The translations under genes and the position numbers were made by a program. The notes under the pieces were generated by a model that was given only the letters and a program-made list of their open reading frames with translations, ran no database searches and was not told the origin of the DNA. This document shows, piece by piece, positions 23,396-49,028 of a stretch of 64,000 nucleotides of DNA. The stretch is from Bradyrhizobium ottawaense (GTDB taxonomy: Bacteria > Pseudomonadota > Alphaproteobacteria > Rhizobiales > Xanthobacteraceae). Numbering within the stretch: position 1 is the first letter of the stretch; the number at the start of each line of letters is the position of its first letter. Where the stretch lies: the NCBI RefSeq assembly GCF_002278135.3, contig NZ_CP029425.2, positions 7,230,001 to 7,294,000 on the forward strand, given 5' to 3'.

Positions 23396-26197
23396 TCATT
23401 CATCCACCATTGCGAGATAGTCCGAGAGTCGCATCCGACGATAGCCGGGCCGCTGCGGCGCCTCGTCTCCCGGTGGAACCATCAGGACGCTCTCCTCGCC
23501 GCGCGGCCGTGGGACGAACTTTTTGGGCGGGACCGGGTCGGCGCGATCCCAGTCGATCTCAAACGCGTCCGCAAAGTACTTTGCAATTCCGGCGTGATCG
23601 AAGATCAGTGAAGCATCGCGGTTGGTCGATACCCCCATGCCACTCCAATTGTGACTCCCGATCAGGACGCGCTTGCCGTCGACGACCATACCCTTGGTAT
23701 GATGGTTGGGGATTTGCTTGAGACGCGAGTCGATGTCGACCCCCTTCGACTTAAAATACCAGGCAGAGTGGGTGGGATCCGAGAACTTCTTGCTGCTGTC
23801 CGCGCGCAGGATCACGCGGGCATCGTCCAGCGAAACCAGCTTGTCGGTCAGTTCGCCGATCAGATCGTCGATGTAGCCGCGATGCTGCCGCGGGTTGCTC
23901 GGCATTCCGATATAGGGGATCTGGAAAACGAGGCTGCGCCTTGCGGAGCGGATCAGCTTCAAAACGGCCTCGCTGTACACTCCGCCTTCGCGGTCGGGCG
24001 TGAGCAGAGGGGCCGCGACAATGCTTTCGGTGATCTCCAGGGGCTTCTTCAGCCGCGCTGGCGGCCGGCGTTCGCGCGGCCGCTCGATGGCTTCGAAGAC
24101 GGACTCCGGCACATCGACCAGCGGCTCGCGATCATCCGCTTTCACCGGCACTTCCTTGCCGCCAAGGTCATGCGACCGCCGCACATCCTGAAGGATGTGC
24201 TCGCGAAATCGCTCGGCTATAGTTGGGCTTTGAACAATCACGTGCCACTCGCGATTGCCGGGCAGGTCCTCCTCCGTAGCCCTGTCGCGCTCGGATGGAT
24301 CGATGATCGGCTGGCTCGACGAACTCTTCCAGTTGCCAGAGGACAGCCAGAACTTGTCATCGTTCCGGACGGTGACCTTGATGTGATAGGACTGCTGAAC
24401 CAGGCCGGTTGTTCCGAGCGGAACGGCGATGCGCTTGAACTTGCCATCGCCGAACCGATCGGCCCACTTCTGAAAGATCGCCTCTGCATCGAATTCGGTA
24501 GTCTCGTCGTCAACGTCAGCGAACGTCTTGAAGTCGGCTGCCAGGATGATCTTCGTTCCGGCAGCGAGACGTTTTGCCATCAGGTCGCTAATGGCTGATG
24601 CACGAAATTCGTATATCGCCGAAACCCAGGAGCCTGCATCCTCGCTCATAAAGGCCTTCAGCTCATCGAAGCCGTATTCCGGGCTGACGTGCGCGCGCAC
24701 CGTCATCAGTTCTTCGACCGGACTCAACTGGTATTTTGGATCGCGGCGGGCATCGTCGTCGTAAGCGTTCGGAGCCGCGGCGGCCTCGAGAGACATCAGG
24801 CCCTCGAGCTGCTCTTCGACCGTGGCCGGGGCGTATTGGACCTGATAGCCCTGGAACGAATGCGGTCCGTCCGCGCGCAGCCCCTCCAGCGCGCCTGGTT
24901 GCGCTGACACGGCGATGCAGGGCGTATCGCCGATGCGGCCGTCATCCTCAAGATAGCCGACGCGCGCTGCGAGCACGCCTTCCGGCTTCTGCTTCCAGAA
25001 CGCCTCGGCGGCATGCTCGACCGACATCCCGACACGGGCCGCACCGGCCACAGTCGATATCGTGCCGAGGTCGACCGTGATGGTGACCGGCACCGTGACG
25101 CTCACCGTGCCCCGCCCGCCGGGGGCGGGCTGCGGCGCCTGTGCGATCGCCGGCCGGGACTCGATCACCAGAGGCAGGGTCCAGCGCTTTTTCGCTACGT
25201 AAAAGTTGAGCTGGCTGGCCGGGACCGCCAGGTTCGTCTCCTTATAGATGCCGGCGAAGTGCAGGCCGACGACTTCGCGGGTCTTGAAATCGACGACCAC
25301 CGATCCGGAGTTGCCGCCCAGCGTCGTGCAATCATGCGTCGTGGCACCGGCACGCGGCGCCGTGATGTAGCCGGGGGCAAACCGCTTCACGTCATATATG
25401 CCACGATAGAGCCGCTGCATCAGCGCCTGATCGGAGATGCGCGATGGCGGTGCCTTGGCGGGGTAGCCGAGCGTGAAAACGGCGGTGTTTTCCAGAGCGT
25501 CGGATCCTGCGATCTTGAACGGCGGCAGTTCATCCCCGTGGCCAAGGGACGCAAGCCTCATGAAGGCGATGTCGTTCGGCCCATCATCCGGCTCGATGTA
25601 GAGCACTTCGGCAATCTGGCGGCGCAGCCCACCAGATGCCGCATCGCGAAAATGACCGGTATCCCAAACCGTGCTCATCGTCCCGCCGCCGGCGCCTTGA
25701 CGGAACACAAAGCCCTGCCCTTGTCGCCGCGCGAAGACATTCGCCACGTGGCGGTTGGTCACGATAATTCCGGCATCGATCAACCAGCCTGTCCCCGCGA
25801 ATGGCGCACCGCCCGGAAAGTCCACGAGGTCGATGCGGCCGACCCGGTCGACCAAGCCTTCCGGAACCGCGCGACTTTGCTTCGACAATTCGAACAGCGT
25901 CTGTGCCTCGACACCGATAAGCGACACATCCTCAAAATTGAGACCGGCTTCTCCATTTCGCTCGACGAAGAAAACCGGTCTCTCCTCAGACACGATCGTC
26001 TCCAGATCGGCGATCGGACTGCGTGTCAAAAGGTCAATCACATCACGCGGGCTTGGCGGCGCTTCCTCGAGGTTTGCCGTCTCGAGACCGGCCTTGTCCC
26101 TTATCCGTTTGGCGATGCTCTGCGCCGCGTCGGGATTGCGCGCGAGCAACCGTTTGACGAACTCGATCAGATCGCTTCGTTGGGATTTGTCGGCCAT
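23396..26197 (-). CDS. Trypsin-fold protease fused to a phospholipase D domain
   Basis: The protein has 933 residues. Residues 1-120 are helical and resemble an adaptor or effector-associated region. Residues 130-340 form a trypsin-like domain: His150 in GWLIDAGIIVTNRHVANVF, Asp209 in DDGPNDIAFMRL and Ser297 in TTLGGNSGSVVVD. The C-terminal part is phospholipase D-like with two HKD-type motifs, H605/K607 (SYHIKVTVRNDD) and H833/K835/D840 (HHTKGMVVDGKRVLIGSHNW). No signal peptide, so it should act in the cytoplasm. It is the last gene of the ten-gene operon. A protease coupled to a nuclease or lipase suggests an effector that is freed or activated by proteolysis (inference). Confidence 0.85.
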   Translation of the reverse strand: MADKSQRSDLIEFVKRLLARNPDAAQSIAKRIRDKAGLETANLEEAPPSPRDVIDLLTRSPIADLETIVSEERPVFFVERNGEAGLNFEDVSLIGVEAQTLFELSKQSRAVPEGLVDRVGRIDLVDFPGGAPFAGTGWLIDAGIIVTNRHVANVFARRQGQGFVFRQGAGGGTMSTVWDTGHFRDAASGGLRRQIAEVLYIEPDDGPNDIAFMRLASLGHGDELPPFKIAGSDALENTAVFTLGYPAKAPPSRISDQALMQRLYRGIYDVKRFAPGYITAPRAGATTHDCTTLGGNSGSVVVDFKTREVVGLHFAGIYKETNLAVPASQLNFYVAKKRWTLPLVIESRPAIAQAPQPAPGGRGTVSVTVPVTITVDLGTISTVAGAARVGMSVEHAAEAFWKQKPEGVLAARVGYLEDDGRIGDTPCIAVSAQPGALEGLRADGPHSFQGYQVQYAPATVEEQLEGLMSLEAAAAPNAYDDDARRDPKYQLSPVEELMTVRAHVSPEYGFDELKAFMSEDAGSWVSAIYEFRASAISDLMAKRLAAGTKIILAADFKTFADVDDETTEFDAEAIFQKWADRFGDGKFKRIAVPLGTTGLVQQSYHIKVTVRNDDKFWLSSGNWKSSSSQPIIDPSERDRATEEDLPGNREWHVIVQSPTIAERFREHILQDVRRSHDLGGKEVPVKADDREPLVDVPESVFEAIERPRERRPPARLKKPLEITESIVAAPLLTPDREGGVYSEAVLKLIRSARRSLVFQIPYIGMPSNPRQHRGYIDDLIGELTDKLVSLDDARVILRADSSKKFSDPTHSAWYFKSKGVDIDSRLKQIPNHHTKGMVVDGKRVLIGSHNWSGMGVSTNRDASLIFDHAGIAKYFADAFEIDWDRADPVPPKKFVPRPRGEESVLMVPPGDEAPQRPGYRRMRLSDYLAMVDE

Positions 26198-26257
26198 CGT
26201 TCGCGCTCCGCGGTTGCTGGAAAATGATTACGGCGTCGCCGGCGAACTTGTCGCCGG

Positions 26258-27394
26258 TCAAGCGACGCGCGCCGGAAAAAGTTGTTTGATCTTCTGATGA
26301 AACAAGTCGGCGAATTGCTCAAACCCCGCCTTCGCAGGATGGAGTTCGTTGTGCCAGGAGGACACCTGCGGCGCCAGCACACCTTGCGTCCTGACGACCG
26401 TCACCCGAGGACCGCTCAGCGACTCCAGCATCGCCTCAAACTGCCCGAGCATCTCGCTGACGACGGCTTGGCCCGACGCAATCGTCGGAAAGTTGCGCAG
26501 ACCGAAGGTCGGCTTGAGCCACGGTCCGAATTTGCAGATGCCGCGGCCGTCGGGTATGGCGAAATCATAACCATGAAAGATGAGATGCGTGTCGGGGCTG
26601 CATTTGTCGCGGATTGCAATCAGATCCTCATATCCGGCGCGCACCAGCGCCAAGGCCGCAGCAAAGCGCGGCTGATTGACGTGCGCCGCTGGTGGCTGAG
26701 TCGGATTCCAGTCCTTGACCCAGAGCGCCATCGGATTGTCGACGATGTCGTTTCCACCTCCGGAAAACAGCAGCAGGTCCCAATCGCCGCCCGCGGGACT
26801 GCCGTTCGTCAATCGTTCGGTCAGGGTCGTGCGCTCCTCGACACCCAGCATGAAACGAACCTCATCGCCCGTCTTCGCCAGGTTGAGGATGGGCACGCCC
26901 AGCCGTCGCTCCAGTCGCGGAACGATGCCGCCGCCGAACAGCGGCACGGGATATTCGAACCACGAATCGCCTTCGGCGAGGATCTGCAGAGGCGCGAACG
27001 CCTCGCCGCGCTCGCCTGCCGCCTCGGCGCCGCCTTCCCCGCGTCCCGCTCGCGGCGGCAACGTGCCGCGGGCCTTCATGATTTTCATGACTGCCTGGTA
27101 TTCGCGGGTCCGGCGAACGCGCTCGCTGCGCTGTTCGCGTCGCAGCTTTTCGCGCTCCTGGCCAATTGTCCTTAGCGACGGCGACTGCGCTACCGCTGCC
27201 CGTGCGGTCTCGAGACCAGCCGCGCGTGGCCGCGCCGGCGCTGATACGCCGGCAAGCACGCGCGCTTCGTCCAGGGTCACGGGCCCGGCCGCGACCGCCG
27301 CCTCCCTTGCGCCAGATTGCGAGCCGGCCTTGCCCTTGCCGGACCGCGGCTTGACGGTGACCTTCCTGGTCCGCTTCTGCTTTGCCATACGCAC
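26258..27394 (-). CDS. SGNH/GDSL-type hydrolase
   Basis: The protein of 378 residues begins with a very basic, Ala-rich tail of about 130 residues (KQKRTRKVTVKPRSGKGKAG). The SGNH hydrolase domain then follows. Block I is LQILAEGDSWFEYP with Ser144, block III is LLLFSGGGNDIVDN with Asn215, and the last block is SSWHNELHPAKAGF with the catalytic His. Such enzymes cleave esters of lipids, carbohydrates or peptidoglycan. Unusually, no signal peptide is seen. A start two codons later (MAKQKRTR) is equally possible. It sits 60 bases upstream of the trypsin-PLD gene; 210 bases separate it from the previous gene, the widest gap in the operon. Confidence 0.8.
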   Translation of the reverse strand: MRMAKQKRTRKVTVKPRSGKGKAGSQSGAREAAVAAGPVTLDEARVLAGVSAPARPRAAGLETARAAVAQSPSLRTIGQEREKLRREQRSERVRRTREYQAVMKIMKARGTLPPRAGRGEGGAEAAGERGEAFAPLQILAEGDSWFEYPVPLFGGGIVPRLERRLGVPILNLAKTGDEVRFMLGVEERTTLTERLTNGSPAGGDWDLLLFSGGGNDIVDNPMALWVKDWNPTQPPAAHVNQPRFAAALALVRAGYEDLIAIRDKCSPDTHLIFHGYDFAIPDGRGICKFGPWLKPTFGLRNFPTIASGQAVVSEMLGQFEAMLESLSGPRVTVVRTQGVLAPQVSSWHNELHPAKAGFEQFADLFHQKIKQLFPARVA

Positions 27395-27604: not shown

Positions 27605-28912
27605 CTACAGCTTGTATTTGCCGTCCGAGTTTACCAGGACTCCGGCGCGCAAGACCCTGCACCTGCCGGTATCGACGCAGTCCTGCACCTTTTTCAAGAC
27701 CTCATCGACCTTCATGCCGTCGCCCGCCTTGCGGCCGACCCCGTTGTTGAACAAGTCCATTTGCGTCGCGAGCGGCTTGCCGGGATTTCCGTCCTCATGC
27801 GTAGTCGCCCATTTGTCGGCCCAGACAACGCCCACGCCGCTGTCGGCCGCCATACGGGCGTTCCACAACGCATGACGAAAGGCATCGCCATTGTCGTCTT
27901 CGAGCGCCGTCGACTTGTAGCGGGCGAGAGCCTCGTTCACGGCAGTTTTCGCGTGTAACAGAACCAGAGCGCCGACGACGGGATTTTGCCTGAACAAATC
28001 CCATTCTGGGGCACTGAGAACACCTGAGGTGATCGGCAGCCCGCCGGATTCCTGACCAGACTTTTCATGTGCGAGCCTCTCCGCGGCCCGCTCGCGGCCC
28101 TCGGTCCAAAATCTTTCCGTCGGCTTCGGGGCCGCGGCCTCACCATTGATCTTGGCCTTCGGGACCGCTGCATTTCCGACCTGAGCCACCGCGCTCACGC
28201 CGAGCAAAGCCAACAGTTCGGCGGGAAGACCCGGAAGATGTCCGATAGGCTCGTTGCTGGCAGTTGCCACGACAAGCCGACCTACCGCGACCACATAGGC
28301 AACGAGAACCGCGGCTTGAAGCAGCAGTTGCTGCACGGCCGTCATATCGACGGTGTTCTGAACGCCAAACTGGCTATTGGTTGTAATGTCGGCAGGCTTC
28401 GCGTCATCGATCTCGATATTGCGGTACATCGACCCCTGGCGCCGGGGGTCCGGGGAGAGAGCGCTCTCGTGGGCACCTGCATCCTTTGGCGGGGTCGCGG
28501 CATGGATCGAATTAACCACGCCGTTTCCGACGAGGCCCCCGAGCACGACACCAGCGAGCGCCCAGATGCTTGCATCAATCTCAACGAAGGACTGCACCAC
28601 GCCGCTTCCGCCCGCCTTCCACAAGGCAACGTTCCAGAACGAAATTGCGAGGAAGGCCGAAGAGAGGACGACAAACCACCCGAACGTAATGACGCGCTGC
28701 AGTGAGTAGCAATTGAACTCGTCGACCAGCGCGGTCTTCACGCCGGTGATGCCGCTTGCAAACATAAATACGCCGAGCAGACAGACACCCCCGACAACCA
28801 ATCGCAGGTAGCTTGGCGTCGCCGCCTCCGCATATCCGAGCGAAACCGCGGAAGCCACGATGAATGCCAACATTGCCGCGGAAATACGCCACCACTTCGT
28901 TTGCAGATTCAT
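27605..28912 (-). CDS. Membrane protein with conserved C-terminal DAFRHA/MDLxNN domain
   Basis: The protein of 435 residues has four or more hydrophobic spans in the first 200 residues (MLAFIVASAVSLGYA, LVVGGVCLLGVFMFASGI, FVVLSSAFLAISFW, WALAGVVLGGLVGNGVV) and another near 215 (LLLQAAVLVAYVVAVG). The C-terminal 150 residues contain DDNGDAFRHALWNARMA, ADKWATTHEDGNP and TQMDLFNNGVGRKAGD. This spaced Asp/His/Asn pattern resembles a conserved bacterial domain (DUF6973-like) of unproven function. The start is 19 bases after the stop of the giant gene. It may anchor or export other operon products; no enzyme activity can be assigned with certainty. Confidence 0.65.
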   Translation of the reverse strand: MNLQTKWWRISAAMLAFIVASAVSLGYAEAATPSYLRLVVGGVCLLGVFMFASGITGVKTALVDEFNCYSLQRVITFGWFVVLSSAFLAISFWNVALWKAGGSGVVQSFVEIDASIWALAGVVLGGLVGNGVVNSIHAATPPKDAGAHESALSPDPRRQGSMYRNIEIDDAKPADITTNSQFGVQNTVDMTAVQQLLLQAAVLVAYVVAVGRLVVATASNEPIGHLPGLPAELLALLGVSAVAQVGNAAVPKAKINGEAAAPKPTERFWTEGRERAAERLAHEKSGQESGGLPITSGVLSAPEWDLFRQNPVVGALVLLHAKTAVNEALARYKSTALEDDNGDAFRHALWNARMAADSGVGVVWADKWATTHEDGNPGKPLATQMDLFNNGVGRKAGDGMKVDEVLKKVQDCVDTGRCRVLRAGVLVNSDGKYKL

Positions 28913-28930
28913 TTCGTTAAACCCTTACCG

Positions 28931-31900: not shown

Positions 31901-34900
31901 CGCGGCGAACTGGTCCCAAAGCTCCTCGTTGAGACCGGTCGGAACGGCGGGCCGCTCCGGCCGCGTCACGATGATGGGCAAGACCCCGGCCGGAGCGATT
32001 GGTTCGCTGAGCTCCGCCCGCGCCAACGGGTTTTCGCTGTCGATCTGGAACGTGAACGAGTGACCATCCAGATAAGCCGCAGGATCGGCCTGGTCGGCAG
32101 GAACATCGAATACGACTGCGTTCGCGTATCCCGCGCTCTCCTCGGTCAGGTACAGGATCATCATTAGCTCGATCGGCGGCGTGCTTCCATCACCCTCCGG
32201 GCGAGGCGGGAGCTGCTGGATCGAACTGCCAGCCGTCGGCCAGCCGATACTCGTGCCGGCGCGGTTCGTGACGCCCGCGCGCCGCACGATTTCGACAAAA
32301 GCCTGAAGCTCGTCGATCGAAGCCACATAGGTCTCCGAGATAGCCGTTTCCGCGGCCAGCTCTGTCGCTCCGAAAGGCCTTGCTTCGGCCGACAGGTCAC
32401 TCTGCACGACCACGGCCGAAGTCGCTGCACCAACCAGCGGCTCAAGCCCATCCGGCTTGACGTTGTAGAACTCGGCGCGTGCGATCCGTTGCGCGCCGCC
32501 GGCCTCCAGGTTGAGGGCATCCAGCCAAACGCGATCGCCTTCGGGCATACCGGCGATCTCGAAGCGATCGAGGACGGCAGCACCCGGGGCCGGTTTCACC
32601 AGTTGCAGCCGCAGCGTCACCGCGATGACGGCGTGCGAGCCGATTTTTGCCGCGGCTTCCGGACGCGTCCGCTCGCCGATTCTGAAGGCACGGAGGCCTG
32701 GACGACTGAGAAGGCCCTCGCTACGCGTCCTCGCCTGGTGACGAATGACCTCGGCCGGGAACGGGACCAGATGGGCACGGTTGCCACCGAGAACGCGGGG
32801 GCGCCCCACGGCGAAGTCGCGCGGCACCGTTCGAAACCTGTCGGCGGCGCTGATGCGCCCGCCAAGGTCGGTAAACAGGTGCGCACTGGCCGCGAACTGG
32901 ACCAAGGCATCGCTCTCGACGCCGTCGATAGCAAAGGTGAGCGCCCCGCCACGCAGGAACGAATCTCCCGTCTCAATGACGAAGGCCGGCCGCTCAGCCG
33001 GGACGGCGGGGCGCCCGAGCGGATGTTGCAGCCAGGCGAGCTGGTAGAGACCATGATGCATTCCGGGCGCAAGGTTCGGAGGCATGACGCCGGCGGGCGG
33101 CGAATCCGGGTCGGGGAGCCGCGGTCCATGCAAGAACAGGCGCGTCGCCATTGCGAGAACGCCTGAGCGAACCTCGTCCCGTTCCAGTTCGTCGAGCAGA
33201 TCGCCCAGCCTGAAGGCATGAGGCGATCCATCCGCACGCGGCGCTGCGGTCCTGATCTTCTCCGCGGCGATGGCACAAAGGCGCGAGATCGAGCCGCGGA
33301 TGATCAACCCGACATAGTCCTCGAACAGGACCTGCGCGATCGGGAGCCGCTGCGGCTCCGCCTCGGCGCCGACCGACTCGGCAACTCGGGAAGGCACAAG
33401 AGCGGCCATCTGACGCTGGAGTTCGGCGTCGATCTTTTCGCGGTAGGCATCGTTGACGACCTGCTTGTCGGCAAGGCGCGTCGTCACCGGCCATTCCGAT
33501 TCGGCAAAGCCGCTCCGGGTGATCGTCGCGGTGGGCGGAAGCGGGAAGAACACGCCGCCGATTTGCGCGGCACCATCGACCGCGTCCGGCGCACGCGAGA
33601 TCGTCGCGTCCACATTGGTCCGAAACAGCGCATCGACAAACAGGAAAGACGGTTGGCGCTTCCGACGCTCGGATGCGTGGGCGGTTCCGTCGAAGATCGT
33701 GTCGCCCGCAGCAACCCAAAGCGAAATTCTGTCGAGCGTGTCGAACGTGATCTCGTGATCGCGCAAGGCGACACCGGGGCTCCGGTTCGTGGTGTTTGCG
33801 ATCGTCCAGGCCGCCATCAAGACAGCCAGGCTCGATCCGCCGACGGGATGCCCATCGGCCGTACTATCGGGAATGACGCCGAGAAAAACGGCGTTGGCGC
33901 GAACGGACGCGTCGGCTGCCGCTGCGAGCGTCATGTCCGGCATCAGATACACGGGCATCCGCCATGGCCCAAGATCCGGTGCGAGCCGCCAGTCTGCCGG
34001 ATTGATGTTTTCGGTCCAGGCCGGCGGCTCCTTGAACACCAGAAGCGGCCTGCCGGCTTCGGTCACGACAATCGACTCGGTGCCGGCACGCGGCTGGAAC
34101 AGGTAGTACTGCGTGTTGCGGTCCGACCCGACGTAGACGGAATAGTCTACGGTCGTCGAGAAGCTGAAATGCAGACTGATCTCGATGGTCTTGCCGAACA
34201 CCCTGAAGCGGGCGATCACGACCGAAATCCGCACGCTGACACCGGCCTCGATATAGAGGCGAATGCGGTGGTCCGTTTTCATATCGAAGCCGTAAGCAAC
34301 CCATACGCGAATGGAGACTCCGGCCTTCACGATGCCGAAGTCGACATAGCCGTATATCTCGCCGAGTATGCCGACCTGCCCGCGGATCGCGACGAAGGTG
34401 GATGCTGCCTGCGTCCACTGACGCACCTCCGGGCGAGCCGGATCGTGCCAGAGCACGCCATAGCCTCCCTCGATCTCGGCGAACACCGTGACCGAGAGCC
34501 CGGCACGAAAGATACCCTTGTTGATCTCCTTGCCGAGGCCGACACGAAACGCCATGCCGACCTCGGTGACGGGCTTGTAGGTCAGAAGGCTATCATCGAC
34601 GATCAATGCGCCCGATCCGCCGCCCTGGTGAAATCTAGGCTGTGGGATCAACCATGCAGCAGGCCCCGATACGCGGCGGAAGTAGAGCCCGCCAGATCCG
34701 ATGAACGGGAATACCTGTACGCCGAAGGCGCGTCCATAATCCTTGTTGAAGGGATAACCGAGATCGACGGTGAAACCGCCGTCGGTATAGATCTCAAATG
34801 CGATCGTTGGAAGCGTGACACTGACGACGCCGAATTCCAGCTGACGCCAGGCCGGCGGCGCGACGATCTCGATCGAATAGACGCCGAGCTTTTCACTGAG

Positions 34901-41168: not shown

Positions 41169-44100
41169 TCAAGCAGTCGGTGACAGCATAGACGTCAGCC
41201 AACGTCTCCATCCCTGAAATGCGGCAGCTATCGCAATGAAATCCTGCGCCCGATCGCTGTGGTGGTCGACGATCTCCGCATATGCAGATAAGGCTTCGAC
41301 GAAACTGCCGGCCTCATCGGCCAGCGAAAGAATGGCGTAGCCATCGAGTGGCCGCCGACTGCGGGCCTGGCGGCCGCCGTTCGCCAGGTATTTGTCGACC
41401 GACGACCACCATCCAAGCTTGCTCGGAATCTCTCCTGGAAATGCCCTGGTCAGGGCGTGCCCAGCCGGCTCTATCCAATCGGGATGTGTCCCGGCGAGCG
41501 TGTTCAGGACACATCGCGCCGCGGCCTCCGAGCCCGATGCGGCCATCTGTGCGACCAACCCCGCGAATTCGCGCGTGAACTTTGGGTCGGCGATCACCGC
41601 GTTGCCCGGAATCGCGGACGAGCCCTTCAGCAAGGTCCTCATGCCGGAGACTAGCTCCGGAAAATTGGGCTGCAATTGGGAAGCGACGGCTTCAAATGAC
41701 TTTCCGAACTCCTGCAACATCCGCGCCCCGATCGTGGAGAAAACGGCGTTGAAATCGAGCTTTCGCAAAATCGGTCGCGCCGTATCCGTTTCATGGAAAG
41801 CGAGCACGCGCAATGCGCCGCTCGTGGTCGCGGCCGCCGGCACCTTTTGTCCACTCCTGCACATCGCTCCGACTGCATCGAGGATGCGAGCTTTTCGCTC
41901 CAGAACGACCGAGCCGGCAACGAAGTCATCCGCATGCACGATGCACGCTGCATAGTCCCAGGCTGCATCGCCCAATCCGGTCGGGAACGATACGAGCTTC
42001 CAGTCGGCCATGCCGGACTGCAGCAGGACGGGAATGGCCTGCGGGTCGCGTGCCCCAAGACGCAAGCAGAAGCGCAACGGCCCGCCGGCAGCTTCATCGG
42101 CCATGCGCGCGGCATCGAAGTCGCCGTCGCCAAGCGCAGCGAACGCAGGCGCCAGCGGTCCGGAGGTCGTGCCTCGATTGAGCCACTCCCGCAGCTCGTC
42201 CCAGTTCCCCGAACGATACTGGGTTTCGCAGACCATCCCGACGAGCGCAGGATTGTGCGCGCCCCTCTGCAGATCGTCCAACACGGAGGAAAGCCCGACG
42301 ACCGCTCCCCGCTGCAGAAGACGCCTGCCGAAAGCCACCAGCAACGAGGACGCCACCCTAGGCGGCAACGTTCTGAGCGCCTCCGCAGAGACCGCCCGTC
42401 CGAGCCTGACCTTGAGGTAGACTTGCGCCGCCCCCGTCAGGTCGTCGACGGCACTGGCCAGGAGGGCTCCCACCTCTGGCCTCCAATAGGAATCCGCCTC
42501 CTCGATTCTCTCCTCGCCGCTCAACAGCAGATGGTAGATCGCTTCCGCGCGCATGTCGGTGCTGCTGTTGGCCCGGGCGCGGAAGAATTTCGTGGCTCGC
42601 AAATTGGCGTTGTCGAACCGCCGGCGATCCTGCCGGCGCATCAGGTCGAGCATCGCAAGCCTTACATCGCTTCGGTGCCGCAGGCACTCGCCGGTGCGGG
42701 TCACAAGCCAGCGCTCGGATTCAAGCCGCCGCAACAGCTCCATCGCTTCGTCCGTTGACAGCGCATCGGCTTTTTCGACGAGGCCGCTGGCCGGGGCCAT
42801 AACCTCGCGGATGACGTCGGTGGTGACGGCGCGCACGACCAGCCCGGGCACCGCGAGCTGCCGTACCTGCGGGTCGTTGATGTGATTGACCATCCGGTTG
42901 ATCAGGATGCCCGTAATGCGCCTGCTCGTCACCAGGTCTGCGCCGGCATCACTGTCATCGTCTCCGGCCGACTCCTGCGCATCCCCTGACTCGCGGTCAG
43001 ATGCCTCGACTTCCCGAATGATCTCGTCCAGGAGAGACGCACGCTCCGCTTGGTCCCTGCTCTTGAGCCAGTTCATGACGATTGCGACATCGAGAGGACT
43101 GCCCCGCAGCAGCTTGGCAAGAGCTGTGATCTGCGAACTCGCGATTCCGATGGCATCGCTTTGGTTGCGCCGGCGGATGAGTTCGACAGTGGCCGCGAGT
43201 GGAAGCGGCCCGAGCTTGATGGGCGGGTGACTAGTCGTGATCTCCGGCGCGCCGGCGCGGCCTGCTACAACGACCCGCAAATTCTCCCAGCTCCCCCCCG
43301 ATCTCGCGCCCGTCGGCGGCGTCGGTGCGCGCAGCGTTGCGATTAGATCTGAGATACCTTTCACCGCCTGCTGGTCGTACTGAACCACTTCGAATGTGTC
43401 GAAGACGAGCAGTACCGGCGCCCGACCCTCGTTGATCGATTCGATGATCGACCTCAGCTCGAAGCAATATGCATTGAGCTGCGATCGCGTCGTATCTTCG
43501 AGCAGCCGCTGCGACGGATTGTTGGCCAGCAGATCGATTGCACCGCGCAAATCGGCTCGGAATTTGGCCAGCGGCGCTTCCAGCCCGGGAAACCACGTGG
43601 AGAATTGGAGGGCAATGTCGATGAGGATCTGCAGCGGCTGGCGCGGTGCCAGCGCGGCGCGATCGAAATCGAGATAGGCGAAGGGTAGATCGACGCCCGG
43701 AAACAAGGCATGGTCGAGAATGAATTTTCCGATCAGACTTGACTTGCCCATGCCGCCGATGCCGCTGATGATCAGCGGCTCGTTGGCTGCGTCGCTGAAG
43801 GTTATTCTCTGCCACAAGCTCCGAATGGCTCGACTTGCATATTGCCTGAGCTCTTCGGGCGGCACGATTCCAACATATGCGCGCAGCGTCTCGATCTGCT
43901 TTTCACGGCCGACGATGCGGTCTCTGCTGCCGTCCGCGCCATCCTGCTCCGTCCGCCCAACCAGGACTCTCAAGGGCTCCAACAATTCGCGTTTGGCGAT
44001 TTGCCTGCGGACATCTGCCGTTGGCGGCACCGCCGCGAAGTCGGTCCCGGCGAGCCAGCCGGACACGACCATCAACTGATCGAGCTCCGAGGCCGTGGCG

Positions 44101-44558
44101 GCGTCTAGCTCGGGCAAATCACCCTTTATGACCCGGCGGAGCATGGCGCCCTCCAGATCGTCGCTGTCCGCAGGTATGTCGATCGCGGACTTCAGCGTGT
44201 TGGACGCGTTGGCATCCAGCAGCACCTGCCGACGGACGCTGGGCTTGAGTTGCCACATGGGCGTCCCGCTCCGCGGCACCAGTTCGGATTGGGCAAGCAA
44301 CGCACGAAGATCCGGACTTTCGTCCTTGTCGGGCGAGAAGCCGATACTGTTGGGAAGGAAGTAGCCGCGGGTGGCGGCGGCCAGCAGCTGCTGTGACGCG
44401 AGGTCACCAGGGAAAGCCGTCTCGGTCTTGCCCGACACGGAATTCGCAGCGTCCCGCACCACGCTCAAATCGCTATCGAGCTTTGCCGTATCGATACCGG
44501 CTGCTCGCAATCGCGCGACGATGTCAGCCATTGAAGACGTGCTATCCGGTGCCGCCAT
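41169..44558 (-). CDS. STAND-type NTPase with helical repeat C-terminus
   Basis: The protein has about 1,129 residues. Residues 1-210 are helical and could recruit partners. Then follow DRIVGREKQIETL, Walker A GIGGMGKSSLIGKF (about residues 266-279), Walker B APVLLVFDTFEVVQY (about 380-394), a sensor-like LRVVVAGRAG and a GxP-type motif LLRGSPLDVAIVM. This order marks the STAND class of signalling NTPases. The C-terminal half is built of repeated helices (TPR-like), typical of a sensing region. The ATG at 44558 has AGAGGTGA upstream; the stop of the preceding gene lies within 20 bases. It is the likely switch of the operon, sensing a trigger and activating effectors (inference). Confidence 0.85.
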   Translation of the reverse strand: MAAPDSTSSMADIVARLRAAGIDTAKLDSDLSVVRDAANSVSGKTETAFPGDLASQQLLAAATRGYFLPNSIGFSPDKDESPDLRALLAQSELVPRSGTPMWQLKPSVRRQVLLDANASNTLKSAIDIPADSDDLEGAMLRRVIKGDLPELDAATASELDQLMVVSGWLAGTDFAAVPPTADVRRQIAKRELLEPLRVLVGRTEQDGADGSRDRIVGREKQIETLRAYVGIVPPEELRQYASRAIRSLWQRITFSDAANEPLIISGIGGMGKSSLIGKFILDHALFPGVDLPFAYLDFDRAALAPRQPLQILIDIALQFSTWFPGLEAPLAKFRADLRGAIDLLANNPSQRLLEDTTRSQLNAYCFELRSIIESINEGRAPVLLVFDTFEVVQYDQQAVKGISDLIATLRAPTPPTGARSGGSWENLRVVVAGRAGAPEITTSHPPIKLGPLPLAATVELIRRRNQSDAIGIASSQITALAKLLRGSPLDVAIVMNWLKSRDQAERASLLDEIIREVEASDRESGDAQESAGDDDSDAGADLVTSRRITGILINRMVNHINDPQVRQLAVPGLVVRAVTTDVIREVMAPASGLVEKADALSTDEAMELLRRLESERWLVTRTGECLRHRSDVRLAMLDLMRRQDRRRFDNANLRATKFFRARANSSTDMRAEAIYHLLLSGEERIEEADSYWRPEVGALLASAVDDLTGAAQVYLKVRLGRAVSAEALRTLPPRVASSLLVAFGRRLLQRGAVVGLSSVLDDLQRGAHNPALVGMVCETQYRSGNWDELREWLNRGTTSGPLAPAFAALGDGDFDAARMADEAAGGPLRFCLRLGARDPQAIPVLLQSGMADWKLVSFPTGLGDAAWDYAACIVHADDFVAGSVVLERKARILDAVGAMCRSGQKVPAAATTSGALRVLAFHETDTARPILRKLDFNAVFSTIGARMLQEFGKSFEAVASQLQPNFPELVSGMRTLLKGSSAIPGNAVIADPKFTREFAGLVAQMAASGSEAAARCVLNTLAGTHPDWIEPAGHALTRAFPGEIPSKLGWWSSVDKYLANGGRQARSRRPLDGYAILSLADEAGSFVEALSAYAEIVDHHSDRAQDFIAIAAAFQGWRRWLTSMLSPTA

Positions 44559-44569
44559 GCCATTCACCT

Positions 44570-46669
44570 CTATTGCATGACCTTGATTGCCTTCAGCGCT
44601 GGGACCACACCGCCAGCCAACGTCTTCAGCCTGAGCCCAGGATCGGCCAAATCCGGCAACGTGGCCTTCGAATATTCGTAGAGCGCTGCAACCGTATCAT
44701 CGTTGTAGCGGCCGTCCGCGCCAGCGGCAGAAACTGCTGCCCGAATGCAGCTCTTCCAGGCTTCGATGCCAATCGTGTCGTAAGCGACGACATCGTGCTT
44801 GTACTGACTTGTATATTCGCGCACAAAATCGGGAATATGACCGATTAGCAGCCAACGCATCGATTTCAAGCCCGGTCCCAACACCTGCTGCGTGTCCGTG
44901 ACACCGATCATCCCCGCGATGAGTTCCTTCAGCCCTCCGTCAGGCGGCGACTTGTGGATGTCATCGATGACGATCCAAACGAGTTCGCGCAATACCAGTT
45001 CCTGACCTGCCGCCGGCCCCGCCGTTCTGTCGATCACGGTTTCGCTCACGGTAAGTCCAGCGTTTTTGGCGCGATCCTCCAACAGCCGACCGAACCAGGC
45101 CGGCAGATCGTTTGCCCACCAGCGGGTACGTTGCCGCTCGTCCGTAGGTTTTTCCGGCATACCCCTCATTTCGCCGAGATCGATGCGGCGGCCGAGTTCC
45201 AGGAGAAAATCCTCCGGCCTGTCGGATTTAAATTCCTTCATTTCCTCGGCGGAGAATTCGACCACGATCGCGGGCCGACGTCGCGCAATGGCGCGCAGGA
45301 TTCGGGTGGAAAAGCTCTTGCCGGACTTTCCAGGCACACCAGATGCGTTCTGCTCGCTGACGACCAGAACCCGCTGCACCGCATGCGAATCGAACATCGC
45401 GAATGCGGCTTCCTTGAAATCCACCCTTCCTAGCACAGGCTCGGGCTTCTGGCGATCATCGGACAACGACCACAGCCCGTCGTTGGTCCCGAAAACGGCG
45501 GATGATTCCAGCAGAAGGCCTGGTTTCTCCACCGAAAGCCGGGCGATCACCTGATTTATAAACACACCCTGATTGCAGAGACTGGTGGGCCTGTTCGGAT
45601 AGGCTGACGGGTGCCCCGCATTGTGAAACCCGACGATATCCGGCGTTGCGTCGAAGCAAGGTGATCCGGAGGAGCCTCCGTTCGTGTTGGTCGAATAAAA
45701 CAATCGGGTCGAGGGATCGGGATCGCTGTCGACAAAGTCCCCCTTATCGAACATCTGGGGACCGGCGGAGGGATGCTGCAGAAGCGCGATTGCACTGCCA
45801 GGACGCGGCGGGCGCACCGGGGCGCCCAAACGCTGCCATCCGCGAAGCTTGCCTCCGCCTCCGCCAATGGATTCGGCACCGATCCGCTCGGCCAGACGAA
45901 TGATTGCGCAGTCGAGGCGCTGGTCAATCGGCGGCGGGCCGAAAAGGTGGGTCCGTCCGTCATCCGGATGCTTCATGCTCGACCATTCGAGCCAACGGCT
46001 GGCTGGCGGATTTTCCCGAGGAGTCACGAGCCTGACCACGCGCAGACCACTCGGCGGGGCTGCGACGGCGAAGGCGCCGACGGGCGCCCAGTAGTCGAAC
46101 ACGAAAGCTAGGCTCTGCTCCGCTCCCGCCAGCGCAACATCCCCGGCCGGGCCGGGGACCAGGAAGCGCTCGACGACGTGACGCGCCGTCAGAACGAGAT
46201 CTGCCCCGATGAGGAAACCGGTCCCCTTGAAGCCCGGCTCGTACGGATCGTCGATCCAGATCGCACACACACGGTAACGGGCGGCCTCCATTCCTTCAAA
46301 GAACGTCTTCGAAACCAGGAAGGGCTGAACCTTGTTGTTCAGGCTCTGGAGGTTAGCCTGATCGGCCACTCCGTCCGCATTCACGGCAATCTGGTCCGAG
46401 AGGATTCCGCGAAGCACGGCATTGGTCTGACTGCGACTGATGAGCTCGACACAAAACCGTTCGAGCCATCCCTGGCTGGCCAAGTGCGGTACCAGCGCTT
46501 CCGTCAAGACGACCTTGTTGCCCGGATCCTGTGGCGCAAGACGCTCGATATAGTTCTTGCGATCGCTCGGCTGCGTGTCGGGCGGCAGGATCGCGTCGAC
46601 CGCCGCCGTTATCACCGCCCACGAGGCGTAGAGATTCAAGACTTTCGGTAAAATCGCCTGCGTCGGCAT
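44570..46669 (-). CDS. Trypsin-fold protease with C-terminal P-loop-like domain
   Basis: The protein has 699 residues. Residues 1-95 are a helical domain reminiscent of effector-associated (EAD) adaptor domains. Residues 140-380 are trypsin-like: His164 in GFLIGADLVLTARHVVE, Asp253 in LDCAIIRLAE and Ser334 in NGGSSGSPCFD. The C-terminal part has GVPGKSGKSFSTRILRAI (about 444-461), a Walker A-like loop one residue longer than usual, and LVWIVIDDIHKSP (Asp569-Asp570) as Walker B, then RWLLIGHIPDF as a sensor-like strand. It starts one base after the preceding stop (TAAAATG). A protease and an NTPase-like module in one chain suggests nucleotide-gated proteolysis. Confidence 0.8.
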   Translation of the reverse strand: MPTQAILPKVLNLYASWAVITAAVDAILPPDTQPSDRKNYIERLAPQDPGNKVVLTEALVPHLASQGWLERFCVELISRSQTNAVLRGILSDQIAVNADGVADQANLQSLNNKVQPFLVSKTFFEGMEAARYRVCAIWIDDPYEPGFKGTGFLIGADLVLTARHVVERFLVPGPAGDVALAGAEQSLAFVFDYWAPVGAFAVAAPPSGLRVVRLVTPRENPPASRWLEWSSMKHPDDGRTHLFGPPPIDQRLDCAIIRLAERIGAESIGGGGGKLRGWQRLGAPVRPPRPGSAIALLQHPSAGPQMFDKGDFVDSDPDPSTRLFYSTNTNGGSSGSPCFDATPDIVGFHNAGHPSAYPNRPTSLCNQGVFINQVIARLSVEKPGLLLESSAVFGTNDGLWSLSDDRQKPEPVLGRVDFKEAAFAMFDSHAVQRVLVVSEQNASGVPGKSGKSFSTRILRAIARRRPAIVVEFSAEEMKEFKSDRPEDFLLELGRRIDLGEMRGMPEKPTDERQRTRWWANDLPAWFGRLLEDRAKNAGLTVSETVIDRTAGPAAGQELVLRELVWIVIDDIHKSPPDGGLKELIAGMIGVTDTQQVLGPGLKSMRWLLIGHIPDFVREYTSQYKHDVVAYDTIGIEAWKSCIRAAVSAAGADGRYNDDTVAALYEYSKATLPDLADPGLRLKTLAGGVVPALKAIKVMQ

Positions 46670-46670
46670 T

Positions 46671-47831
46671 TTAGATACCCCACTCCCCCGTCTGGCTTCG
46701 GACGATCGCAGGGTGATCGGCTATCGCCGACAGGAGCACGGCTTCGTTGCGCGCTCCGGGGCGGCCAAAATAATGCAGTCCCACAACCTTCGACGATGCG
46801 AAATCCACCAGCGGACTGCCGGAGGACCCATTGGTCGTCGAACAGTCGTGGGCCAGTACATCCGTGCCGAGAAGCTCCAGCACGCAACCCGGAGAAAAGC
46901 GCTTGGTGCCGTCGAGCTCACCGAAAACTTTGAATACGTTCTGATCGTCCGCGAGGTCCTTGATCGGGTGCCCTGCGACGAAAACATTCCGTTTCGCCCA
47001 TCCGTTGGACTGTGCCTTCAGATCCATCACGATCGGTGACGGCATGCCGCCTGCCGCGTCCGCCGTCGGCGGCTTCAGCCGGAAAATCGCGAGATCCGGT
47101 TTGTCACCGCCCTCGACATAAAGCACCTCGTCGAGGGCGAACCGCGAATGCTTCGAGCCTCCCTTCTCGAAGCGGAAATCTACGACGCATGGCCGATCGG
47201 TCCGCAACCGCCATCCCTGGCGCACGTCGGTGGCCGCCAGCGCAGCGTTCTGTCGGGCCACCGCACCGGCGACATGCGCATTGGTCACCAGCGTGTTCCT
47301 GCCAATCAACCACCCGGTCGCAACAGGAACGAACGGCTCAGCGCTTCCGACCATGATGCAGCCAACCCGAGCGCAGATGTCCAGGATCGCGTTCTGTGCC
47401 GTATTGATATACGCAACCCAGAAGTCGTCTTTCGCAGTCGCCGCACTGGTGTCGGGCGCATCGCCCTCGACGAACCAGGCTGGCCGCCCAATGACTTGGA
47501 TCACGGCCTCCAGATTCGCCAATTGCCCTGCGTTGAGATCGCGATGGCTGACGTGACCGCCGGCGAGCGAGGCGGCAAGGTCGAGTCCTTCCCGTGCGGT
47601 CTTGTTGGCAACCGCGCGAGCGAGCTCCGTCGCGCCGGGAGACGCCGCTTTGAGATTCCATTCGATGCGCTGCTCAACCTCCTGCAACGACGGTGACTTC
47701 GGCGCGACTGACTCCAATCCGCCGGCTTCTCGCGGCGCCGCCGCTGGTCCGAGCCCCAGCTTCTTGATCTCTTTGATGACTCGTTCGGCGCGTTCCTCAG
47801 TGGACTCCGGGAAGCGGGCTCGACTTATCAT
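46671..47831 (-). CDS. Trypsin-fold serine protease
   Basis: The protein has 386 residues. An N-terminal helical region of about 125 residues (TEERAERVIKEIKKLGLG and onwards) precedes a trypsin-like domain with His186 in GWLIGRNTLVTNAHVAG, Asp246 in KPDLAIFRLK and Ser337 in TTNGSSGSPLVDF, a full triad. There is no signal peptide. GGAGAG precedes the ATG. It is closely related in layout to the protease part of the next gene and of the trypsin-PLD gene, suggesting duplication within the operon. Its substrate is unknown; other operon proteins are candidates. Confidence 0.85.
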   Translation of the reverse strand: MISRARFPESTEERAERVIKEIKKLGLGPAAAPREAGGLESVAPKSPSLQEVEQRIEWNLKAASPGATELARAVANKTAREGLDLAASLAGGHVSHRDLNAGQLANLEAVIQVIGRPAWFVEGDAPDTSAATAKDDFWVAYINTAQNAILDICARVGCIMVGSAEPFVPVATGWLIGRNTLVTNAHVAGAVARQNAALAATDVRQGWRLRTDRPCVVDFRFEKGGSKHSRFALDEVLYVEGGDKPDLAIFRLKPPTADAAGGMPSPIVMDLKAQSNGWAKRNVFVAGHPIKDLADDQNVFKVFGELDGTKRFSPGCVLELLGTDVLAHDCSTTNGSSGSPLVDFASSKVVGLHYFGRPGARNEAVLLSAIADHPAIVRSQTGEWGI

Positions 47832-47856
47832 GGCGTCTCTCCGCAGGGGACCGTCA

Positions 47857-48153
47857 TCAGGGCGGATCGATTGTTACGTCATAGGTCTTGTCCGGCTCCG
47901 CTCCGACATTGATGTCTACGGAGCGGCTCTCGCCAGAGGCGGTGAAGATGCGCAGCCGAACCTCTCCGGTTGGAAGCCCGATCTGGGCATGCCCGTCCGC
48001 ATCCGTTTGATACATCAGTTCCGGCACCGGACCGCTTGCCTGCTCGACCGCGATCCGGGCACCGGCAAGCGGCTGCCCATCGCGGAGGGTCACATGAATG
48101 AAGCACCGGCTGCGCGGCACGGAAGCTGTCAAGCCGAGGCGGCCTGCAACCAC
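47857..48153 (-). CDS. Small CNA-B/Ig-like beta-sandwich protein
   Basis: The product of 98 residues contains RDGQPLAGARIAVEQASG, YQTDADGHAQIGLPTGEV and RSVDINVGAEPDKTYDVTI. This is the pattern of carboxypeptidase-regulatory-like or CNA-B beta-sandwich domains. A GTG start at 48153 overlaps the previous gene; a second GTG at 48120 would begin just after its stop. No signal peptide. As a stand-alone domain it may be an adaptor or a binding module for a neighbouring protease. Confidence 0.6.
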   Translation of the reverse strand: MVAGRLGLTASVPRSRCFIHVTLRDGQPLAGARIAVEQASGPVPELMYQTDADGHAQIGLPTGEVRLRIFTASGESRSVDINVGAEPDKTYDVTIDPP

Positions 48154-49028
48154 TCCTTCACCGTCAACACGATCTCCGGCGAAAGTCGCGGTCCGGAATT
48201 CGCCGTCACGCCGAGACTGGGCGCCGTGCCACCTATTCCATAAGCGTGCACCGCAACGGCAACAGCTTCGCTGGTCGCCGACGCCTGGACCCAGACAGGC
48301 GAGCCACTCTGGCCTCCGTACGTATCGACGTCGTAATAGATGCGGTGTGCGGACGTCCGAAGCACCCTGTTCTGGTGGAAGTACTGGTTTCGCCCGTTGT
48401 CGAGATCACCCGGATAGCCCGAAATGTTGACGAGAGCGTTCTCCAGCTCGGCATCCGTCTGCGACGCGATCTTGAAATAGCCGACCTCCTCGCCCAGCGG
48501 CTCCGCCAGCTGAATGCAACCGATGTCATGATCGGGATCGGCCGAGTTGATCCATTGCTGAAGCGCAAAGAACTTCGTTGCGGTCACGGTCCTGAAGGGA
48601 GATACGCCTGCGTCCTGCCCCGGCGAGACCTCGATCGAACCAATCCAGCCGTTGAAATCCGACGGGCTGTAGACGCAGTGTCCTGCGGTCAGCAGGGTCT
48701 TGGGGCCGATAAACCACCCCGTCCCGATATACGAAGATGTCTGTGGCGGCCGAGGCTTCAATTTCAGCCCGGCAATCTTGCGCCACGGCGGGGCCTTTGT
48801 ATTGGTAATTCTGACGCGGTCGTCGGTGCCCAGCACTGTTTCGTTGCCGACCCGCACGCCCTTCGGTTTTATCTTGACATCCGATTTTCCAAAGACAAGC
48901 AGATCCTGCTGCGATTCGCCCTTGGACTCGGCGCTGCCATCACTGCCGGCAGTTTCGATGACGGGCGCAATGGGTTGATTTTCGGTGGGCGGCAAGGCCG
49001 CTGACGACGACCAGGGCAACGCATTCAT
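48129..49028 (-). CDS. V8-like trypsin-fold serine protease, first gene of the operon
   Basis: The protein of 299 residues has an unstructured N-terminus of about 80 residues and then a glutamyl-endopeptidase-like domain: His117 in IGPKTLLTAGHCVYSP, Asp168 in DPDHDIGCIQL and Ser241 in YGGQSGSPVWV. The triad is complete. GAGGAGG lies close before the ATG, a very strong ribosome site. No clear signal peptide is present, so activity in the cytoplasm or after non-classical export is possible. It opens the ten-gene minus-strand cluster; 500 bases of decayed DNA lie upstream. Confidence 0.85.
   Translation of the reverse strand: MNALPWSSSAALPPTENQPIAPVIETAGSDGSAESKGESQQDLLVFGKSDVKIKPKGVRVGNETVLGTDDRVRITNTKAPPWRKIAGLKLKPRPPQTSSYIGTGWFIGPKTLLTAGHCVYSPSDFNGWIGSIEVSPGQDAGVSPFRTVTATKFFALQQWINSADPDHDIGCIQLAEPLGEEVGYFKIASQTDAELENALVNISGYPGDLDNGRNQYFHQNRVLRTSAHRIYYDVDTYGGQSGSPVWVQASATSEAVAVAVHAYGIGGTAPSLGVTANSGPRLSPEIVLTVKEWLQAASA

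What the first reader, a model, noticed from the sequence alone, without database searches (positions are those of the whole stretch)
23396..49028. Ten-gene operon with four trypsin-fold proteases, a STAND NTPase and a giant protein
Seen: ten minus-strand genes, several overlapping or within 20 bases, from a V8-like protease to a trypsin-phospholipase D fusion. Four separate complete Ser-His-Asp triads sit beside a STAND-type NTPase, an OmpA-like secreted protein, a 3,307-residue protein, an SGNH hydrolase and a membrane protein. Known: STAND NTPases act as switches in bacterial conflict systems, and trypsin-like domains occur there as effectors or activators. Inferred: one machine in which the NTPase senses a trigger, the proteases cut partners, and the lipase, nuclease or phospholipase parts do damage at the membrane. 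I know of no described system with this full set.
Basis: partly seen in the sequence, partly recalled or inferred. Interest (0 to 1): 0.92.

Follow-up and report, generated by a model that had tools for sequence, protein, structure and literature searches.

The report
STAND-protease-nuclease operon with giant protein
A soil bacterium carries a ten-gene switch in which a sensor-like protein and four protein-cutting enzymes probably free a DNA-cutting enzyme, coupled to a giant protein of unknown kind that recurs beside similar enzymes in distant bacteria.

Summary
In detail: ten minus-strand genes, four trypsin-fold domains with His/Asp/Ser motifs, a STAND-type NTPase and a 3,307-residue protein.

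The protease/STAND half is not new in kind. It matches 'System 3' of Kaur et al. 2020 (NucA-trypsin systems), with NucA replaced by a PLD domain on the same pro-segment-trypsin protein. Protease-unlocked nucleases are proven in Hachiman and AVAST (Tuck et al. 2025).

The giant is the new part: no Pfam family, no PDB relative by profile, a predicted beta-barrel-like domain, an OmpA-like gene before it. In other phyla its core is divided between two proteins at one point inside that domain, with an EEP or MBL hydrolase gene between them in 8 of 15 loci. Yet giants often occur without STAND or proteases.

Best reading: a STAND-triggered proteolytic cascade freeing a nuclease, coupled to an envelope-linked giant. 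Cascade order, PLD acting on nucleic acid and the giant's role are inferred. Verdict: new variant of a known kind.

The parts
48129..49028 (-). Trypsin-fold protease, 299 aa (trp299); first gene of the operon
   Evidence: Trypsin 43.8 bits, Trypsin_2 43.4 bits; His, Asp and Ser motifs starting at 114, 168 and 239
47857..48153 (-). 98-aa CarboxypepD_reg-like protein (sm98)
   Evidence: PF13620 35.1 bits, over cut-off; relative in L002 near a giant
46671..47831 (-). Trypsin-fold protease, 386 aa (trp386), with N-terminal pro-segment
   Evidence: Trypsin_2 47.0 bits; motifs; PADLOC model 'nacht' PDLC03010 52.4 bits; shared pro-segment; same order before trp699-STAND in relatives
44570..46669 (-). 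Trypsin-fold protease, 699 aa (trp699), 2-base gap to STAND
   Evidence: Trypsin_2 49.3 bits; motifs; parallel divergence with STAND
41169..44567 (-). STAND-type NTPase, 1132 aa, putative sensor/switch
   Evidence: AAA_16 34.7 bits, Walker motifs, weak TPR in the C-terminal part (16.0 bits, below cut-off); 48 database clusters with 89-100% of the query covered at 36-100% identity
38848..41109 (-). OmpA-like protein, 753 aa, signal-peptide-like start by eye, overlapping the giant by 7 bases
   Evidence: OmpA 24.5 bits, below cut-off; homologue in the same position in L003
28931..38854 (-). Giant protein, 3307 aa, no Pfam family
34055..35542 (-). Beta-barrel-like core of the giant (residues 1105-1600)
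35273..35284 (-). Point (residues about 1191-1194) at which the core is divided between two proteins, A and B, in other phyla
27605..28912 (-). Membrane protein with C-terminal DUF6973, 435 aa
   Evidence: DUF6973 85.1 bits; six hydrophobic stretches; relative in L002 next to a giant
26258..27394 (-). SGNH/GDSL hydrolase-like protein, 378 aa
   Evidence: Lipase_GDSL_2 28.1 bits, below cut-off 32.9; GDS and GGGND motifs; relatives in G516 and in an S8-containing protein of L033
23396..26197 (-). Trypsin-PLD fusion, 933 aa, putative protease-nuclease effector
   Evidence: Trypsin_2 60.0 and PLDc_2 57.8 bits; HKD at 833; 835 relatives, 116 of the 120 listed with both domains
25808..26197 (-). N-terminal pro-segment of the trypsin-PLD protein, shared with trp386 and the trypsin-NucA proteins
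   Evidence: profile built from 13 sequences, this one included, also matches two left out: G774_21 2.9e-16 and G540_29 4.9e-15, in a set of 27 short sequences

Best explanation
It is a conflict (probably anti-invader, self-destructive) operon of the NucA-trypsin kind in which PLD stands in for NucA. The STAND NTPase senses a trigger and oligomerises. It activates its neighbour trp699, which by limited cleavage activates the pro-segment proteases trp386 and trypsin-PLD. The freed PLD nuclease, helped by the SGNH and DUF6973 proteins, destroys nucleic acid and envelope. The OmpA-like protein, giant and membrane protein form an envelope-linked assembly that holds, gates or is opened by the cascade. 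Shown: gene set, domains, catalytic motifs, shared pro-segment, co-conservation and nuclease swap. Inferred: trigger, cleavage order, PLD acting on nucleic acid, and the giant's role.
For: Domain calls and motifs. Trypsin-nuclease, trp386, trp699, STAND lie in this order beside a giant in a Burkholderiaceae and a Verrucomicrobiaceae MAG, with NucA in the PLD slot. In 13 further STAND places examined, a trypsin gene is directly next to the STAND in 10 and one ORF away in 2. STAND and nearest trypsin diverge in parallel: r = 0.88, 11 loci, permutation p = 5e-5; r = 0.82, 10 loci, p = 1e-4. Shared pro-segment. Kaur et al. propose for System 3 a proteolytic cascade that deploys the nuclease (PMC7159879, section 32 read). 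Trypsin activation of gated nucleases is demonstrated in Hachiman and AVAST (PMC12799240, abstract and passages).
Against: No protease-substrate relation is shown. The PLD is not proved to be a nuclease: named models hit it only weakly (NucT 19.9 and DrmC 16.7 bits; DrmC 23.1 and MkoB 22.3 bits) and only one canonical HKD was found. Giants occur without a STAND match in 14 of 17 genomes searched and without a trypsin or S8 match in the fetched flanks in 20 of 27 loci, or 21 if a weak one in L026 is not counted, so the giant does not need the cascade. In 11 of the 13 further STAND places no giant was found in the fetched stretch. No EAD1 was found in trp699 or STAND. The correlation rests partly on two groups of closer loci; most other pairs are near saturation.
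Confidence: 0.55

Rival explanations
1. The operon makes an antibacterial (inter-bacterial) weapon: the giant, anchored by the OmpA-like protein, displays or delivers the hydrolases to neighbours, and the proteases mature them.
For: Giant neighbours include enzymes against peptidoglycan and nucleic acid: Amidase_3, trypsin and Exo_endo_phos in one protein of L002, S8 with a Tlde1-like domain just below cut-off in L003, NucA in G388 and G390. LysM in distant giants and OmpA-like or (by eye) lipobox-bearing partners point to the envelope.
Against: No signal peptide was noticed on the giant or the trypsins by eye; the hydrophobicity scan flags only a mild stretch at residues 10-28 of trp699. No secretion or immunity gene was recognised among the ten, though neither was searched for in the rest of the genome. 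A STAND switch fits self-directed defence better.
Confidence: 0.2
2. Two independent modules were put together: a mobile STAND/trypsin/nuclease defence cassette, and an envelope giant with its partners.
For: Each half occurs without the other. In G388 and G390 the trp386-trp699-STAND block lies downstream of the giant, in the window upstream.
Against: The same two halves meet in three lineages at low identity, and the block partner-giant-(membrane protein or other)-(hydrolase)-trypsin-nuclease is collinear. Giants in one chain have a linked trypsin or S8 in 6 of 12 loci against 0 of 15 for divided giants (Fisher p = 0.003; p = 0.02 if the weak S8 of L026 is counted).
Confidence: 0.2
3. A housekeeping envelope operon (outer-membrane protein or lipid handling) with its own proteases.
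For: The barrel-like domain resembles outer-membrane porins in fold; OmpA-like and membrane proteins are present.
Against: Patchy distribution: STAND in 13 of 265 and giant in 7 of 265 genomes of the genus, own genome counted; a recently truncated copy at 99.4% identity in G413; transposases nearby; giants in Gram-positive bacteria without an outer membrane.
Confidence: 0.05

Closest known systems
NucA-trypsin systems, 'System 3' of Kaur, Burroughs, Iyer and Aravind 2020 (PMC7159879)
   Same: Several trypsin domains in one operon, a trypsin-nuclease fusion, a STAND NTPase, S8 or a lysozyme-like protein in relatives, alphaproteobacteria. The relatives G283, G388 and G390 carry the defining NucA fused to trypsin.
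   Different: Here PLD stands in place of NucA, the STAND is not fused to a trypsin, no EAD1 was detected, and the giant, OmpA-like protein, DUF6973 and SGNH are added. Section 32 does not mention them; the word phospholipase occurs once elsewhere in the main text in a passage I did not see, and figures are not held.
Gated MBL nuclease with trypsin in AVAST, Hachiman, Lamassu and DRT (Tuck et al. 2025, PMC12799240)
   Same: Works alike: sensor, trypsin, pro-nuclease. Divided giants in other bacteria have an MBL gene between A and B in some loci (family of five); the one of G580 matches LmuA at 43.0 and RTasMBL at 34.1 bits.
   Different: No MBL match in the window operon. Its nuclease candidate is a PLD fused to the C-terminus of the protease rather than a separate gene.
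PADLOC model 'nacht' PDLC03010 (378 positions)
   Same: Matches trp386 over residues 40-368 (52.4 bits), trypsin-PLD (27.5 bits) and the trypsin-NucA protein of G390 (50.1 bits): such proteases are already in a defence database.
   Different: The model has no description there; which system it stands for was not established.
Bacterial gasdermins (recalled)
   Same: Protease genes beside a protein that could make beta-strand pores.
   Different: Gasdermin rows in Foldseek are weak (E 0.04-0.1) and the giant is far larger; kinship is not shown.
Outer-membrane beta-barrels (porins, autotransporters)
   Different: No Foldseek match at E <= 0.001 for the domain alone, no signal peptide seen, and homologues in Gram-positive bacteria.

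Membership tests
NucA-trypsin System 3 (Kaur et al. 2020) | NucA (Endonuclease_NS) nuclease in the operon | tested here: not met
   No Endonuclease_NS in eight of the ten proteins, in the giant or in the 98-aa protein; PLD in its place. Met in the relatives G283, G388, G390.
NucA-trypsin System 3 (Kaur et al. 2020) | One or several trypsin-like peptidases in the operon, which may be fused to the nuclease | tested here: met
   Four trypsin domains, one fused to PLD
NucA-trypsin System 3 (Kaur et al. 2020) | EAD1 on one trypsin paralogue (a subset of the systems) | tested here: not met
   No EAD1 match at E <= 10 for the N-termini of trp699, trp386, trypsin-PLD and STAND. A diverged EAD is not excluded.
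NucA-trypsin System 3 (Kaur et al. 2020) | STAND NTPase fused to a trypsin and a Death-like domain (certain operons) | tested here: not met
   STAND is a separate gene 2 bases after trp699; no trypsin in it. The Death-like domain bDLD2 was not tested.
AVAST type I / gated MBL nuclease-protease systems | MBL-fold nuclease gene beside the trypsin | tested here: not met
   No MBL family among the Pfam matches of the ten proteins. PADLOC was run on eight of the ten; its LmuA match there (24.2 bits) is on the trypsin part of trp299.
AVAST type I / gated MBL nuclease-protease systems | Trypsin fused to the STAND protein (Avs1) | tested here: not met
   Separate genes; Avs1b model only 12.4 bits, on trp299
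Zorya (ZorB, OmpA/MotB-like) | ZorB beside a MotA-like ZorA | tested here: not met
   ZorB at most 18.9 bits on the OmpA-like protein; the membrane protein matches no PADLOC family. The giant and the 98-aa protein were not in that scan.
Outer-membrane beta-barrel proteins | Barrel fold | tested here: inconclusive
Outer-membrane beta-barrel proteins | N-terminal export signal | tested here: inconclusive
   No hydrophobic N-terminal stretch in the giant (sequence; scan), but that scan also missed the signal-like start of the OmpA-like protein and no signal-peptide program was available
Bacterial gasdermins | Gasdermin fold | tested here: inconclusive
   Weak Foldseek rows only

The most novel reading that the evidence does not exclude
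The giant (one chain of 3,307 residues here, proteins A plus B elsewhere) founds a new class of conflict machine: a very large beta-barrel container or pore that holds a nuclease (EEP or MBL encoded between A and B; PLD or NucA through a trypsin fusion) and is opened by its own STAND-controlled proteases to release it or to breach the membrane.
Probability: 0.17. Interest if true: 0.93.

Novelty: new variant of a known kind. Interest (0 to 1): 0.7.

Why it matters
If right, the operon shows that the proven protease-unlocks-nuclease logic also works with PLD and NucA nucleases, and ties it to an uncharacterised giant family found, by the organism titles, in Proteobacteria, Actinomycetota, Bacillota, Bacteroidota, Acidobacteriota, Cyanobacteria and Verrucomicrobiota (phylum names recalled). 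The A-hydrolase-B gene order gives a direct test: do A and B form one barrel, and does the enzyme encoded between them bind to it? It would add a large structural component to bacterial immune systems built from proteases and STAND proteins.

Tried and rejected
Led nowhere: no giant relative confirmed in viral contigs and no PDB chain for the giant profile at E <= 1; no NCBIfam match and no PADLOC match for the STAND protein; promoter scans found as many promoter-like sites as chance on two stretches, and terminator-like sites were 8 against 4.7 expected on one and 1 against 6.0 on the other, so operon limits rest on spacing alone; DUF6973 is in no paper of the library; BFVD gave no match at E <= 0.001. 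In the VIA-align list of the smaller model (50 entries shown) I saw outer-membrane and TOM-complex barrels only; that is absence from a list.

Rejected: (a) 'the four proteases are a chance cluster' (density, conserved order); (b) 'the giant is a strain oddity or mis-assembly' (41 database hits including its own; 27 loci; 99.7-99.9% identical copies of the operon's pieces in another assembly); (c) 'OmpA partner homologous everywhere': apart from L001 only L003 matches by profile; elsewhere the gene before the giant is alike in position only; (d) the M15-peptidase look of the gene after the giant in G388 is a motif seen by eye and recalled; Pfam gives nothing.

Limits: ORFs were picked by length and some in high-GC DNA are in the wrong frame (L022's A half was missed and recovered). 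The Verrucomicrobiaceae giant and the G490 and (probably) G540 STANDs lie in more than one ORF; they were left as they are. Of the 13 genus genomes with a STAND match (own genome included) I fetched the neighbourhoods of five (G516, G450, G490, G509, G540) besides the window and L001's genome, and not those of the other six; of five hits in the genus of Pseudomonas sp. GM50 I fetched one; of four plasmid hits I read three, the fourth being a near-identical Paracoccus plasmid. In one search, 18 of 27 giant loci were given and 17 genomes were held. One search used the window and 11 of the 13 further STAND places (not G540, not L033), one of two STAND pieces for G490, and for L032 a trypsin one gene away.


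Full report
WHAT IS THERE. The window lies at 7,230,001-7,294,000 of an 8.59 Mb single-contig genome whose operon is almost identical to one in Bradyrhizobium sp. CCBAU 43298 (L001, 99.7%). On the minus strand, in order of transcription, lie trp299, sm98, trp386, trp699, STAND, OmpA-like, giant, DUF6973 membrane protein, SGNH and trypsin-PLD. Five of nine junctions overlap or are within 20 bases. Four of the genome's 17 Trypsin_2 matches fall in these 25.6 kb, and each has the catalytic motifs. The sub-threshold calls (OmpA, SGNH) should be read as likenesses.

THE PROTEASE-STAND HALF. The STAND protein has 48 database clusters with 89-100% of the query covered at 36-100% identity (the first is identical) and a tail of distant ones, two of which are listed with both Trypsin_2 and PF19955 (that PF19955 is EAD1 is recalled). 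It is patchy: 2 of 385 genomes of the class and 13 of 265 of the genus, own genome counted in both, and 5 of 298 in the genus of a Pseudomonas genome. I looked at 13 further STAND places (G283, G388, G390, two in G450, G490, G509, G516, G540, G774 and three plasmid loci). A trypsin gene is directly next to the STAND in 10; in G540 and L032 one other ORF lies between (in L032 an annotated EAD1 protein); the exception is a 366-aa STAND fragment in L033. By profile a NucA domain lies in the fetched stretch in 7 of 13 and S8 in 7 of 13, one of them weak. The order trp386-like, trp699-like, STAND is found in the window, G388, G390, G283, G450 (first place) and G490. Distances between STANDs and between their nearest trypsins are correlated (r = 0.88 for 11 loci, 0 of 20,000 permutations as high; 0.82 for 10), though two groups of closer loci contribute.

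THE EFFECTOR SWAP. In G388, G390 and G283 the first protease is fused to Endonuclease_NS (NucA) at 98.9-114.3 bits. In the window the same pro-segment-trypsin protein carries PLD. The pro-segment profile, built from 13 sequences including these, also finds two that were not used to build it (2.9e-16 and 4.9e-15), while trp699 (0.009) and STAND (0.69) score poorly; E-values are for 27 short sequences. Trypsin-PLD fusions are a large family: 835 relatives at E <= 0.001 among the scored candidates, 116 of the best 120 with both domains. On plasmids tblastn finds 42 records, 29 typed conjugative; of the 20 rows listed, 8 have a PLD-like and 10 a DNA/RNA non-specific endonuclease protein annotated under the match, one a trypsin-like protein and one no annotation. 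Six contexts were read: between them they show M12 metallopeptidases, caspase-family proteins, S8, further trypsins and peptidoglycan-active enzymes, though one (L097) shows only S8 and the NucA protein. None has a gene recognised as a giant; L098 has a 7.8-kb hypothetical gene at its edge, which the giant-core search of plasmids did not list. The PLD is therefore best read as a nuclease by position; direct nuclease-model evidence is weak.

THE GIANT. It has no Pfam match, its profile finds no PDB chain, and relatives of similar length go down to 22% identity in the alignment. A scan of genome contigs gave 27 loci from many phyla. A profile of residues 560-1660 shows two layouts: both halves in one chain (12 of 27 loci: L001-L009, L011, L012, L017), or divided between a protein A (830-1,441 aa, match at its C-terminal end; weak in L020 and L021) and a protein B (2,741-4,707 aa) in 15 of 27 (for L023 only part of B is held). 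The division falls at window residues 1188-1194 in 6 of 9 A rows and 11 of 12 B rows of the alignment; the other rows have stray residues beyond it. B usually has about 170-940 residues of its own before this point, so the one-chain form is not a plain end-to-end fusion. Between A and B lies an EEP-type hydrolase in L015, L016, L022, L024 and L027 (a profile seeded with four of these finds the fifth; Pfam supports L027, and gives nothing for L015 and L016) or an MBL-fold hydrolase in L020, L021 and L025: 8 of 15. The others have none or something unidentified. Bradyrhizobium G631 (EEP, read by eye), G580 and the plasmid locus L034 (MBL) add three more. The G580 MBL matches PADLOC's LmuA and RT-associated MBL models (43.0 and 34.1 bits), the kind that Tuck et al. 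show to be unlocked by trypsins in other systems (PMC12799240, abstract and passages).

LINK BETWEEN THE HALVES. STAND was found in 3 of 17 giant-bearing genomes searched, each time on the giant's contig and in the same gene cluster: L001's genome, a Burkholderiaceae MAG and a Verrucomicrobiaceae MAG. The latter two are 24-28% identical to the window in STAND and trp699. Partner, giant, membrane protein or other, hydrolase, trypsin-nuclease are collinear with the window; the trp386-trp699-STAND block is upstream in one and downstream in the other two. A trypsin or S8 gene is linked to 6 of 12 one-chain giants (L001-L006) and to 0 of 15 divided ones if a weak S8 match on the other strand in L026 (E 3e-5) is left aside: Fisher p = 0.003, or 0.02 with it counted. 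Against a single obligate machine: L002 and L003 lie in genomes without a STAND match, G486 has a full giant with no trypsin or S8 match in 40 kb, and 11 of 13 further STAND places show no giant.

MECHANISM. Shown: composition, motifs, order, shared pro-segment, co-conservation and swap. From the literature: System 3 was proposed to work by a proteolytic cascade that deploys its nuclease, and trypsin-gated nucleases are demonstrated in Hachiman and AVAST. Inferred: STAND as trigger, trp699 as its first protease (by adjacency and parallel divergence), cleavage of the pro-segments of trp386 and trypsin-PLD, nucleic-acid destruction by PLD, and an envelope-linked giant assembly as platform, gate or pore.

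MOBILITY AND LOSS. Two other assemblies lack the IS630-type transposase (family by resemblance) next to the operon's 3' end: there window 22173 is followed directly by 23290. In G413 the downstream half is 99.4% identical, but at that place everything upstream of giant residue about 1429 is gone, and G413 has no STAND match. The operon is thus recently transferred or lost, as defence loci often are.

LITERATURE. What was seen: PMC7159879, section 32 whole and passages; PMC8195603, passages; PMC12799240, abstract, start of the introduction and passages; other papers as listings only. In the listings of the searches for the combination and for DUF6973 (none) no title or abstract start points to the giant or a PLD version; subscription papers, preprints and figures are not covered. 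AVAST type I details beyond Tuck et al., Mokosh and gasdermins are recalled.

Counts and wording were corrected against the calls (STAND coverage, adjacency 10 + 2 of 13, sizes of A and B, the division point, the alternative Fisher test, the larger model's Foldseek matches, the PADLOC 'nacht' match, and the export-signal row set to inconclusive).

Noticed in passing
window 50628-52837 (-): ThiF- and JAB-like gene pair with PADLOC matches BilD (63.3 bits) and BilC (26.3 bits): possibly part of a Bil (ISG15-like conjugation, recalled) system upstream of the operon.
   Followed up: partly
window 22216-23280 (+): Transposase (DDE_3; IS630-like) next to the 3' end of the operon; the stretch is absent at this point in two near-identical relatives, so a recent insertion or a loss in those.
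   Followed up: yes
L092 (G413), 420-11621: Recently truncated copy of the operon (99.4% identical): trypsin-PLD, SGNH, DUF6973 and the C-terminal part of the giant remain; STAND and the other trypsins are missing there.
   Followed up: yes
L091 9670-11286, L034 15996-17435, L025 11365-13218, L020 6429-7586, L021 5367-7490: MBL-fold hydrolases encoded between the A and B proteins of divided giants; the one in L091 resembles Lamassu LmuA and DRT-associated MBL models.
   Followed up: partly
L094 9361-14727 and L098 10519-14868: Very long trypsin-PLD proteins on rhizobial plasmids directly after a caspase-family gene: possible caspase-to-trypsin-PLD cascade.
   Followed up: no
L032 (Paracoccus plasmid) 16952-40909: Trypsin, EAD1 protein and STAND followed by seven annotated hypothetical proteins of 698-818 aa, one of 233 aa, a PLD protein and a tyrosinase: another unexplained payload behind the same switch.
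   Followed up: no
window 20273-21565 (+) and 58984-60948 (-): HipA-type protein and a carbamoyltransferase (NodU-like, recalled), with an IS110-type transposase at 55898-56980: a mobile, possibly symbiosis-island setting.
   Followed up: no
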